This document shows, piece after piece, positions 11,437 through 42,974 of a stretch of DNA of 64,000 nt. This DNA comes from Vulcanisaeta souniana JCM 11219 (GTDB lineage Archaea > Thermoproteota > Thermoprotei > Thermoproteales > Thermocladiaceae). The stretch lies in contig NZ_AP026830.1 of assembly GCF_026000775.1 (NCBI RefSeq), positions 1,573,056-1,637,055 of the forward strand, written 5' to 3'. Under the pieces are notes generated by a model. The model ran no database searches, had not been told where the DNA came from, and saw only the letters and a list, made by a program, of their open reading frames with translations. Positions within the stretch are counted from its first letter, which is position 1; each line of letters opens with the position of its first letter. Position numbers and translations under genes: made by a program.

Positions 11437-11544
11437 TGGTGCGGCCGCCGGGATTCGAACTTACCCCGTACGCCCAATCGGACGCACGGCCGGGTTCTGC
11501 GGCTCGGCAGGCCGCCATCCTAGACCAGGCTAGACTACGGCCGC
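11437..11544 (-). tRNA. tRNA-Gly(GCC) with a 29-base intron in the T-stem
   Basis: The acceptor stem is GCGGCCG paired with CGGCCGC, the anticodon arm GCGGC-CTGCCGA-GCCGC gives anticodon GCC (glycine), and the T-loop is TTCGAAT. The gene encodes discriminator A and CCA. The T-stem can only form (CCGGG with CCCGG) if 29 bases between its fourth and fifth 5' bases are removed, so an intron lies between positions 52 and 53 in standard numbering. Without the intron the tRNA has 79 bases. A TATA-like element at about 11563-11573 (minus) lies 26 bases upstream and overlaps the end of the DUF309 gene. Confidence 0.9.
11461..11489 (-). other. Intron of tRNA-Gly(GCC), non-canonical position 52/53
   Basis: The 29 bases contain a self-pairing helix, CCGTGCG with CGTACGG (one G-U), at the exon-intron border, as expected for the bulge-helix-bulge recognised by archaeal splicing endonuclease. 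Sequence alone fixes the boundaries, because shifting either end by one base breaks the T-stem. Confidence 0.8.
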
Positions 11545-13914: not shown

Positions 13915-14127
13915 TTAAAGCAATAATTGTTCAGTTTCCTTAAGCGTTCCACTGACAACATCAATTTCAAGACCTAATGCCTCCAATGCCGTGACTCCAA
14001 GCACATTTACATCCTCCTCTTCACCGAAAATTACCGTTACGGCGCCCCTCCTACCCATAACCTCAATTATCGCACCACCAACATCCCTCTCAACATAACC
14101 ACCAAAGGCCAAGAACCTCCTCCTCTC
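13915..14127 (-). pseudogene. C-terminal remnant of a retropepsin-like aspartic protease family protein
   Basis: The 70 remaining codons (RRRFLAFGGYVERDVGG onward, then 'TVIFGEEEDVNVLGVTALEALGLEID') match the second half of the small archaeal clan AA aspartic-protease-like proteins, which normally have about 120 residues and a DTG active site in the first half. Here the frame runs straight into the end of an insertion element at 14128 and the DTG half is missing; it is not found on the other side of the element either. So the gene was cut and partly deleted. The family match is from memory of typical sequences and is moderately sure. Confidence 0.6.
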
Positions 14128-14213
14128 ATGCCCCGCTTCCCCGCATCCCAGCGATTCTAATCATCCGTCATTTACCGTCGGGACTGAGCCCCATCCTCGG
14201 GGCTTCATTGGCC
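14128..14213 (-). repeat. Inverted, divergent copy of the TnpB right end
   Basis: Read on the minus strand it ends with GGATGCGGGGAAGCGGGGCAT, as does the true right end at 15711-15731 (one mismatch). Further inward both contain a hairpin flanked by GAAGC and followed by a conserved purine-rich stretch. In hairpin parts the differences are partly compensatory, which suggests conserved RNA structure, like the guide-RNA scaffold of TnpB systems. Confidence 0.6.
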
Positions 14214-14338
14214 GGCGTGGGACGGGGCTCCCTGCCAGTGGGGCTACAGCCCGCACCGGCACTAAGTGGGCTTAAGCTTAGCTGGTTTATAAATTTCCTG
14301 CAGAAAAATTTATAAAATACTGCAGTTAATTCCTGAAG

Positions 14339-14506
14339 ATGTCTGTAGTCCTTTATCTGGAGGGTACCGTTATTGCTGGTGGGAAGGGTGAGGTGAGGAT
14401 TTACGTGAAGAAGAGGTACTGGGATAGGCTAAAGCCGTTCATAGGCAAGGAGGTTAAGCTACTAATGGTGGTTGAGGATGAAGGCTCACAGGACGCTCCT
14501 CATTAG
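14339..14506 (+). CDS. Small transposon-associated protein (DUF2080-like)
   Basis: This 55-residue frame (MSVVLYLEGTVIAGGKGEVR at the start, 'KRYWDRLKPFIGKEVKLLMVV' later) lies just before tnpB and overlaps its first codons. Small AbrB-like or DUF2080-type proteins often precede tnpB in archaeal IS elements; the beta-rich pattern 'GKGEVRIYVKK..W..L..FIGKEVKL' fits that type. A TATA element at 14310-14321 stands 26 bases before ATG 14339, so the gene is still preceded by an intact-looking leaderless promoter. Function would be regulation of the element; this is an inference. Confidence 0.55.
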   Translation: MSVVLYLEGTVIAGGKGEVRIYVKKRYWDRLKPFIGKEVKLLMVVEDEGSQDAPH

Positions 14507-15598
14507 GAGGAGCGTGAAGCGTTGGTAAGGGTTTTTACTAGGGCTGAAGCGTTGGGTAACCTCTGGGCCGGGGCTTTAAGATATATTCACCTGGCTTAGA
14601 TTCCAGATTTGCTAACGAATTCAACTACTTTAGGAATAAAATCAGCTTCAGCGTCAAGCCGCCGAAGAGGTGGCTTGCCAGGGTTCACGCAATTCTCAAC
14701 GTCAAGGTTAGGTTAAACAATGAGCGTGACAATGGCGAGGGAGTCTTTCTCGATCCGCCTAAGGGTATTCTTAAACTGAGGTGGGTTATTAAAAGCAGGG
14801 CCGTTATTGTTAAACTCACGAGGAGTGAGATGAAGTACATTAAGGATAGGCTTAGTGAGGGTGGCAAGCCCAAGCTAGCCAGGGCTTGGATTGACGGCGA
14901 GAACCTCTACGTGGCTGTAGTCTTTGAGCGTGAAGTCGAGCCAATCGAGCCCGGCGGTTACATTCTCGTCATCGATGTGAACTCGTGGAAAAACGGTATC
15001 ACTTACGCTATTATTAATGGGGGTGGTAAACTCAGTGAATTTTCAAAATTAAGGCCAAACCTGAGGTTAATTGAAACTCTCCATAGCGAGGCTGTTAGGC
15101 TTGAGCGAAAGTACGGCGCCTTGAGGGGGCTTGGTCTTCATAAGTCAGTCGAGGGTAAGAGACTGTGGAGGCAGGTTAAGTATGTTAAGCGTAAATTGCA
15201 TGCATACCTGAAGGATTTCGCTCAAAAGATTGCCCATGAGCTAGCCCTGAAGGCCGTTAGGCTCAAAGCCAGGGTAGTCATCGATGACATGCTTGAGGAG
15301 TCCAGGAGGGAGCTGCTTAAGGAGGGTTTGCCCGATGGGTTTAGCCAAGCTATACTTACTTCACCTTAAGAGGTTCGTTAAACTCCTAACCAACCAACTC
15401 GAGTGATACGGGATGCCTTACGAGTTTAAGAGATTACCGTCAACAATATGCCCGGCTTGCGGGCATGAACTAAAGCAACTACCCGGAAGAGTAATGCACT
15501 GCGAATACTGTGAATTCAAAGCTGATAGAGACCTAGTCCCAATACAGTGGGCCCTGAAGAGGATGGTGTCTCTGCATGAGCCGAGAGCCCACTCATGA
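14479..15598 (+). pseudogene. tnpB: tnpB (IS605 OrfB) pseudogene, several frameshifts
   Basis: Pieces of one TnpB lie in successive frames. The N-terminal part starts at ATG 14479 (MKAHRTLLIRRSVKRW) and stops; a second piece ('RVFTRAEALGNLWAGALRYIH') is in another frame; the main body is open from about 14610 to 15369 and includes the RuvC-I motif 'VIDVNSWKNG' and 'VVIDDMLEESRREL'; a last piece (about 15370-15598) after a frameshift and a TGA in place of Trp carries the zinc ribbon CPAC..CEYC and the RuvC-III 'ADRDLV'. One-base deletions near 14600 and 15360 explain the main breaks. The protein is therefore not made intact. Confidence 0.85.
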
Positions 15599-15731
15599 AG
15601 GCAGTAAAACGCAAATCAATAAACCACCCAAAGTAAACTTCAGACTAGTGAAGCTCCGAGAATGAGAGTTAGCCCCAACAGGGGACTGAAGGATGAGTGA
15701 GGTTCAGTAGGATGCGGAGAAGCGGGGCATT
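15599..15731 (+). ncRNA. Candidate TnpB guide RNA scaffold / right end
   Basis: The 133 bases between the tnpB remnant and the element tip contain the complementary blocks gccccaacaggggac and gaagctccgagaatgagag and end in GGATGCGGAGAAGCGGGGCAT. TnpB systems (established knowledge) make their guide RNA from the 3' end of the gene and the right end, with the flanking DNA as guide. If made, the guide here would begin at ttaaacctaccaatcg. With tnpB broken, activity would need a TnpB from elsewhere. Confidence 0.45.
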
Positions 15732-42875: not shown

Positions 42876-42974
42876 GCGGGGGTAGCTCAGCCTGGTTGGA
42901 GCGCCCTGGGGCGGAAGCCCCGCGTAAGGCTCATAACCGGGAGGTCCCGGGTTCAAATCCCGGCCCCCGCACCA
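42876..42974 (+). tRNA. tRNA-Met(CAT) with a 21-base intron in the anticodon stem
   Basis: Acceptor GCGGGGG/CCCCCGC, D-stem GCTC/GAGC, T-arm CCCGG-GTTCAAATC-style with TTCAAAT loop, encoded A and CCA. The anticodon loop is CTCATAA (CAT). Its stem CCCGG/CCGGG forms only if 21 bases after CCC are removed, so the intron lies between positions 29 and 30. The stem is not the GGG/CCC run of an initiator, so this is elongator Met or a CAT tRNA-Ile (lysidine/agmatidine type). TATA-like cttttaaa at 42844-42851. Confidence 0.88.
42907..42927 (+). other. Intron of tRNA-Met(CAT), position 29/30
   Basis: The 21 bases (tggggcggaagccccgcgtaa minus last base shown in parts: tggggcggaa / gccccgcgtaa) pair internally, GGGGC with GCCCC, to form the core of a bulge-helix-bulge. 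Removing them restores the five-base-pair anticodon stem. Boundaries are fixed because a shift by one base would break pairing. Confidence 0.78.

What the first reader, a model, noticed from the sequence alone, without database searches (positions are those of the whole stretch)
14128..15731. TnpB element whose two tips are inverted copies of one structured sequence
Left (minus strand) and right tips share 20 of 21 terminal bases, and similarity continues for about 85 bases including hairpins with compensatory-looking changes. IS605-type TnpB elements should not have inverted ends. This suggests a solo right-end/guide-RNA scaffold (its tnpB gone) joined head-on to a second element, or a new mode in which both ends carry guide scaffolds facing outward.
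Basis: partly seen in the sequence, partly recalled or inferred. Interest (0 to 1): 0.7.

Follow-up and report, generated by a model that had tools for sequence, protein, structure and literature searches.

The report
TnpB element with backward-facing guide RNA
A worn-out mobile element in a heat-loving archaeon carries, at its left tip, what looks like a guide-RNA gene pointing away from its TnpB gene, an unusual layout shared by its relatives, while the mirror copy at its right tip is probably a leftover of a second insertion.

Summary
The inverted tips are real. Left 14128-14263 (minus strand) and right about 15640-15731 (plus strand) share 20 of 21 terminal bases. A covariance model built without the right tip finds it at E about 2e-9. 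They are not a matched pair. The left tip is the regular, sharply bounded end of a tnpB element family in Vulcanisaeta, Caldivirga and relatives. The right copy occurs only in the window (1 of 18 tnpB-bearing copies) and is decayed. It probably is the stump of a second, inverted insertion; about 150 bp of a host gene is missing between the two.

The left tip is the interesting part. It is a structured RNA of about 135 nt with a covarying stem and an archaeal-type promoter, directed outward into random flanking DNA. Its P2 loop pairs with its own 3' end. A second TnpB group (4 loci) has the same layout with a different loop/3'-end pair that has changed on both sides. In a third group the corresponding RNA lies downstream of tnpB, the usual place. 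I read the tip as the element's guide (omega) RNA, placed upstream and transcribed divergently from tnpB. No RNA data exist here, so function is inferred. New variant of a known kind.

The parts
14128..14263 (-). Left tip: structured RNA of about 135 nt, read as the guide (omega) RNA scaffold, facing outward; its 3' end abuts the flank at 14127/14128
   Evidence: Covariance model 122 bits; P2 covariation; P2 loop/3'-end complementarity
14108..14127 (-). Flank that would serve as guide (inferred); inside the remnant of a host gene
   Evidence: Sharp boundary and no consensus in the flanks of 21 tips; guide role inferred
14286..14293 (-). TATA-like box for the outward RNA, about 25 nt before the P1 stem
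   Evidence: such a box at this distance in 20 of 27 tips against 4 expected
14309..14318 (+). TATA-like box for the small ORF and tnpB (divergent promoter)
   Evidence: Sequence reading; similar two-box layout in other copies
14339..14506 (+). Small ORF of 55 aa just before tnpB; no Pfam or NCBIfam match
14478..15556 (+). tnpB of family X, broken by frameshifts (pieces 14478-14519, 14507-14569, 14566-15351, 15332-15556)
   Evidence: tblastn with intact relatives, E 2e-127; TNB domain
15595..15638 (+). Stretch resembling the omega-RNA region downstream of another TnpB type of the same genome (82% over 44 nt to L017)
15640..15731 (+). Right tip: decayed inverted copy of the left-tip type, read as the stump of a second insertion
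13915..14127 (-). 3' remnant of a host gene (reads as an aspartic-protease-like protein) cut by the left tip; about 150 bp including its start is absent between the two tips
   Evidence: Intact or near-intact gene in relatives, gap 147-163 bp in 5 relatives analysed of 6

Best explanation
The window holds one decayed copy of a Thermoproteales tnpB element family. Its left tip is a separate guide-RNA gene: its own BRE/TATA promoter fires outward, makes a scaffold of about 135 nt (P1 hairpin, P2 hairpin whose loop pairs with the 3' end, P3), and reads on into the flanking DNA, which supplies the guide. The tnpB gene fires the other way from its own promoter. TnpB would bind this RNA and cut, or mark, the matching empty site, as other TnpBs do. 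The layout thus differs from the usual one, in which the omega RNA overlaps the 3' end of tnpB on the same strand. The right tip is not part of the design. It is the remaining tip of a second, inverted, older insertion, left after a deletion that removed the rest of that element, the right end of the first one and about 150 bp of host DNA. Shown: tips, family, layout, boundary, promoter-motif enrichment, P2 covariation, TnpB fold. Inferred: transcription, guide use, nuclease activity, and the two-insertion history.
For: Left tip: 34 model hits in 15 of 45 genomes of the order. tnpB-X lies inward and divergent in 18 of 32 tip loci examined and in canonical order in none; the other 14 had no tnpB in the DNA at hand, several on short contigs. 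Boundary exact and flanks without consensus in the 21 of 33 tips with a clear GCCCCG start. TATA-like box at the right distance in 20 of 27 tips, about 4 expected. P2 stem keeps pairing through two-sided changes. P2 loop matches the tip's own 3' end, mean run 5.9 bp in 28 tips, against about 2.3 bp when loops and tails are swapped with the second group. That group (L027, L219, L220, L221) shows the same layout with CTGACGGC/GCCGTCAG, and in L220 CTGGCGG/CCGCCAG, a change on both sides. In group G (G028) an RNA with the same loop/3'-end pairing lies downstream of tnpB. TnpB and Cas12f are the best structural matches. Right tip: 42.8 against 122 bits, unique among 18 copies.
Against: No transcript or protein-RNA data. 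The covariance model of X does not find the tips of the second group even without filters, so that homology rests on layout, a shared string (ACTGA.CA.TGATGCC) and the pairing topology. RuvC-II has D instead of the usual E in all members examined, so cutting is uncertain. The TATA pattern was chosen after looking at the sequences. The G028 loop and tail patterns were chosen for G- and C-rich strings, so that group's pairing is biased upward. L067 and L135 also have a canonical-looking RNA region 3' of tnpB, which could be the real omega RNA. No TAM could be established. In the unrooted tree X and the second group are separate, so either two inversions happened or the divergent layout is old.
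Confidence: 0.68

Rival explanations
1. The left tip is only a transposition end: a DNA structure recognised by a transposase in trans, with the hairpins acting as single-stranded DNA. The guide RNA is the usual one 3' of tnpB.
For: It is the exact element border in the copies with a clear start. Deletion derivatives keep the tip and the tnpB 3' end (L065, L070, L133, L134), as if both ends matter for movement. Canonical-looking 3' RNA regions exist in L067, L135, L062.
Against: An outward promoter-like box at a fixed distance is not expected. No target motif in the flank, unlike Y1 left ends (the Y1 rule is from PMC8612924). The second group ends about 27 nt after the last conserved tnpB codons, leaving no room for a 3' omega RNA, and its outward RNA ends in a hairpin + GAGCCGTCAG, close to the 3' ends of canonical omega RNAs in the same genome (GAGGAGGTCAG).
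Confidence: 0.2
2. The two tips are a true inverted-end element (a new mode with two matching outward scaffolds), and the other copies have lost the right tip.
For: The last 21 bases are much more alike (95%) than the rest (about 70%), as if kept for function.
Against: 0 of 17 other tnpB-bearing copies have it. The terminus is conserved among all left tips anyway, so two independent tips would match there too. The right tip is far more decayed than the left. Just before it lies a piece that looks like another TnpB type's RNA.
Confidence: 0.07
3. The right tip arose from the same element by an aberrant single event, such as copying of its own left end, and not from a second insertion.
For: Only one tnpB body is present. 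The 150 bp host loss could come from one event.
Against: The right tip is no closer to its own left tip than to tips of other genomes (72% against 73% to L068).
Confidence: 0.12

Closest known systems
IS200/IS605 TnpB with reRNA/omega RNA (ISDra2; PMC8612924, passages read)
   Same: TnpB fold; structured RNA at the element border; flank would be the guide
   Different: There the RNA matches the 3' end of tnpB and the right end, on the tnpB strand; here it lies upstream, on the other strand, with its own promoter-like sequence
IS607 TnpB with RAGATH-18 RNA (PMC11061315, passages read)
   Same: A conserved noncoding RNA paired with a TnpB of similar length
   Different: That RNA lies just downstream of tnpB; no Rfam family matches the tip
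IscB/OMEGA with upstream omega RNA and stand-alone omega RNAs (recalled, not read here)
   Same: RNA upstream of the nuclease gene; solo guide loci, compare solo tips L131, L147
   Different: IscB RNA is on the gene's strand with the guide at its 5' end; here the guide would be at the 3' end, on the other strand

Membership tests
TnpB (IS200/IS605, IS607) RNA-guided nucleases | TnpB/Cas12f-like fold with RuvC and zinc ribbon | tested here: met
   Foldseek best matches TnpB and Cas12f, E 1.9e-10; TNB domain above cut-off in 3 of 3 intact proteins scanned
TnpB (IS200/IS605, IS607) RNA-guided nucleases | Score above NCBI's curated TnpB cut-off | tested here: not met
   guided_TnpB 31-44 bits, cut-off 100, 3 proteins
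TnpB (IS200/IS605, IS607) RNA-guided nucleases | RuvC D-E-D catalytic residues | tested here: not met
   D at the RuvC-II position in 8 of 8; same in the two other groups
TnpB (IS200/IS605, IS607) RNA-guided nucleases | Omega RNA overlapping or following the 3' end of tnpB, same strand | tested here: inconclusive
   Tip RNA is upstream and divergent in 18 of 18 X copies with tnpB; L067, L135 also carry a 3' region of canonical look
TnpB (IS200/IS605, IS607) RNA-guided nucleases | TAM next to the end opposite the guide | tested here: inconclusive
   No motif beside the tip; the other end too variable to call
TnpB (IS200/IS605, IS607) RNA-guided nucleases | RNA-guided DNA cleavage | not testable with these tools
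   Needs the bench
Transposon with terminal inverted repeats | Matching inverted ends in independent copies | tested here: not met
   1 of 18 copies, the window itself

The most novel reading that the evidence does not exclude
A TnpB lineage whose guide RNA is an independent, promoter-driven gene that points away from tnpB. Solo tips act as trans guides for TnpBs elsewhere in the genome, and copies such as L067 and L135 carry two different outward scaffolds, so that one TnpB could read both flanks and guard both junctions.
Probability: 0.18. Interest if true: 0.82.

Novelty: new variant of a known kind. Interest (0 to 1): 0.6.

Why it matters
[quoted passage not shown] A lineage with the guide gene upstream, on the other strand and under its own promoter would show that the two can be uncoupled. 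It would help explain solo guide loci and give a natural model for the step towards CRISPR-like systems with separate guide genes. It also warns that omega-RNA searches that look only downstream of tnpB will miss such guides.

Tried and rejected
Rfam gave no family for the tip, even at loose thresholds. A search of phage records gave nothing. Reading the left tip as a solo piece was rejected once other copies showed it. Reading the right half of L062 as the family's own right end is unsure, because its flank matches another TnpB type. I first took the D at RuvC-II as special to X; it is shared by the two other groups. A search for a pairing partner of GAGGTCAG within 260 nt upstream in canonical copies found none in 4 of 4. 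L219 gives the cleanest insertion (host frame intact in G021), but its exact right border stays ambiguous by about 15 bp; flanks of L219 hit different contigs in G015. Empty-site searches with L059 and L060 gave no clean empty site; with L063 and L065 host DNA was missing or replaced between the flanks (about 80 bp in L065). R1 with filters off did not find the second group's tips.

Full report
What was checked. The same test in 16 other copies gives only chance-like scores, 71-112 against 213. A covariance model of 14 left-type tips, built without the right tip, finds the left tip at 122.4 bits and the right at 42.8 bits, E 2.1e-9, in the window. The right tip has broken P3 pairs and no alignable P2, so it is a homologue but a decayed one.

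Where it lies. The window is part of a closed 2.43 Mb genome. Relatives found with names are Vulcanisaeta sp. JCM 16159, Caldivirga sp. MU80, a Thermoproteaceae MAG and an Acidilobaceae MAG; the genome's own name was not given. The left tip interrupts a gene that reads as aspartic-protease-like (my reading; Pfam gave nothing convincing). In relatives the host DNA is present; in the 5 analysed of 6 the DNA absent from the window is 147-163 bp, the 5' part of that gene. Two further relatives show only about 65 and 195 bp between the flanking genes, apparently without that gene.

The family. A DNA search of 61 genomes showed many copies beginning at the same base as the left tip. I fetched them and searched the order with the model: 34 hits in 15 of 45 genomes. 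In 32 tip loci examined, tnpB-X lies inward of the tip and divergent in 18, and in canonical order in none; 14 had no tnpB in the DNA at hand, some of them on very short contigs. Only the window copy, 1 of 18 with tnpB, has an inverted copy of its tip further in. So the left tip is the family's end, and the right tip is an oddity of this locus.

What the left tip is. Read on the minus strand it is a structured RNA. P2 keeps pairing with changes on both sides (CCC/GGG, GGG/CCC, GCC/GGC, CCG/CGG). The P1 region folds better than shuffles by more than one standard deviation in 17 of 27 tips, mean z -1.75. A TATA-like box stands 20-48 nt upstream of the model start in 20 of 27 tips, 4.0 expected from shuffles; these are the 27 best of 34 rows, and the pattern was chosen after inspection. 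The 3' end meets the flank exactly, and the flanks of 21 tips show no motif; 12 further tips without a clean GCCCCG start were left out of that count. The P2 loop is complementary to the 3' end (GCCCCG/CGGGGC), with GTCCCG/CGGGAC in L139 and GGCCCC/GGGGCC in L073; mean run 5.9 bp over 28 tips, 6 of 34 rows left out for short loops; some low-scoring tips have lost the pairing.

Comparison groups. A second TnpB group, about 28-35% identical to X, with members in the window's own genome (L027, L221), Caldivirga (L219) and G005 (L220), has the same order: outward RNA, small ORF, tnpB. Its loop/3'-end pair is CTGACGGC/GCCGTCAG, in L220 CTGGCGG/CCGCCAG. Loops of one group do not match tails of the other (about 2.3 bp). 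Its RNA ends in a hairpin followed by GAGCCGTCAG, close to the canonical 3' ends GAGGAGGTCAG or GAAGAGGTCAG of omega RNAs downstream of other TnpBs of this genome. A third group, mostly genome G028 with 41 matches, has an RNA with the same loop/3'-end pairing downstream of tnpB (12 of 15 loci matched my patterns, which were chosen for G- and C-rich strings). The three groups are each one branch of an unrooted protein tree, so the direction of change cannot be told.

The protein. An AlphaFold2 model of L169 (mean pLDDT 75) matches TnpB and Cas12f structures best, though NCBI's TnpB model scores only 31-44 bits against a cut-off of 100. RuvC-II carries D in place of E in all members examined of all three groups. 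Whether it cuts is open.

Right ends. X elements vary at the right. tnpB similarity stops near window 15559 in most copies. L067 and L135, with L065, share a region ending CACCTAGGGACAAACGG. L061, L062, L134 and the window show pieces of other TnpB types there. In L065 about 80 bp of host DNA is absent at the site, in L063 several hundred bp are replaced. In the second group, L219 sits in an ABC-transporter ATPase gene (my reading) that is intact in Caldivirga sp. MU80 (G021) with little or no loss. The missing host DNA in the window is thus not unusual for X, but the inverted second tip is.

History of the locus. The simplest account is two insertions in opposite directions about 150 bp apart, followed by a deletion that joined the body of the first to the tip of the second. 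The unequal decay of the tips (122 against 43 bits) and the fact that the right tip is as close to tips elsewhere as to its partner (73% against 72%) support it. It is an inference.

Literature. Seven searches of the held library listed no paper that, by title and start of abstract, describes an omega RNA upstream of and divergent from tnpB. Passages of PMC8612924, PMC11061315 and PMC12558985 were read; the first two place the RNA at or after the 3' end of tnpB. Subscription papers and preprints are largely missing from that library, so novelty in print is not proven.

Noticed in passing
L059:2632-2687: A second, partial tip in the same orientation just outside the left tip of this copy (24 bits), pointing to nested insertions.
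   Followed up: no
L131, L146, L147, L148, L136, L138: Tips without tnpB in the DNA at hand, several with the outward promoter-like box kept: possible stand-alone guide genes or relics.
   Followed up: partly
L136 (G023:C52): This tip also sits in a gene that reads as aspartic-protease-like, at another position; the family may favour such genes or it is chance.
   Followed up: no
G028 (L205-L218): 41 matches of related TnpBs in one 1.8 Mb genome, with a conserved region downstream that has a TATA-like CTTTTAA before the RNA.
   Followed up: partly
Right ends of L061, L062, L134, window 15595-15638: X elements are repeatedly joined on the right to pieces of other TnpB types in the same orientation.
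   Followed up: partly
window 42876-42971 and 11440-11544: tRNA matches of 96 and 105 nt, longer than usual, probably with introns.
   Followed up: no
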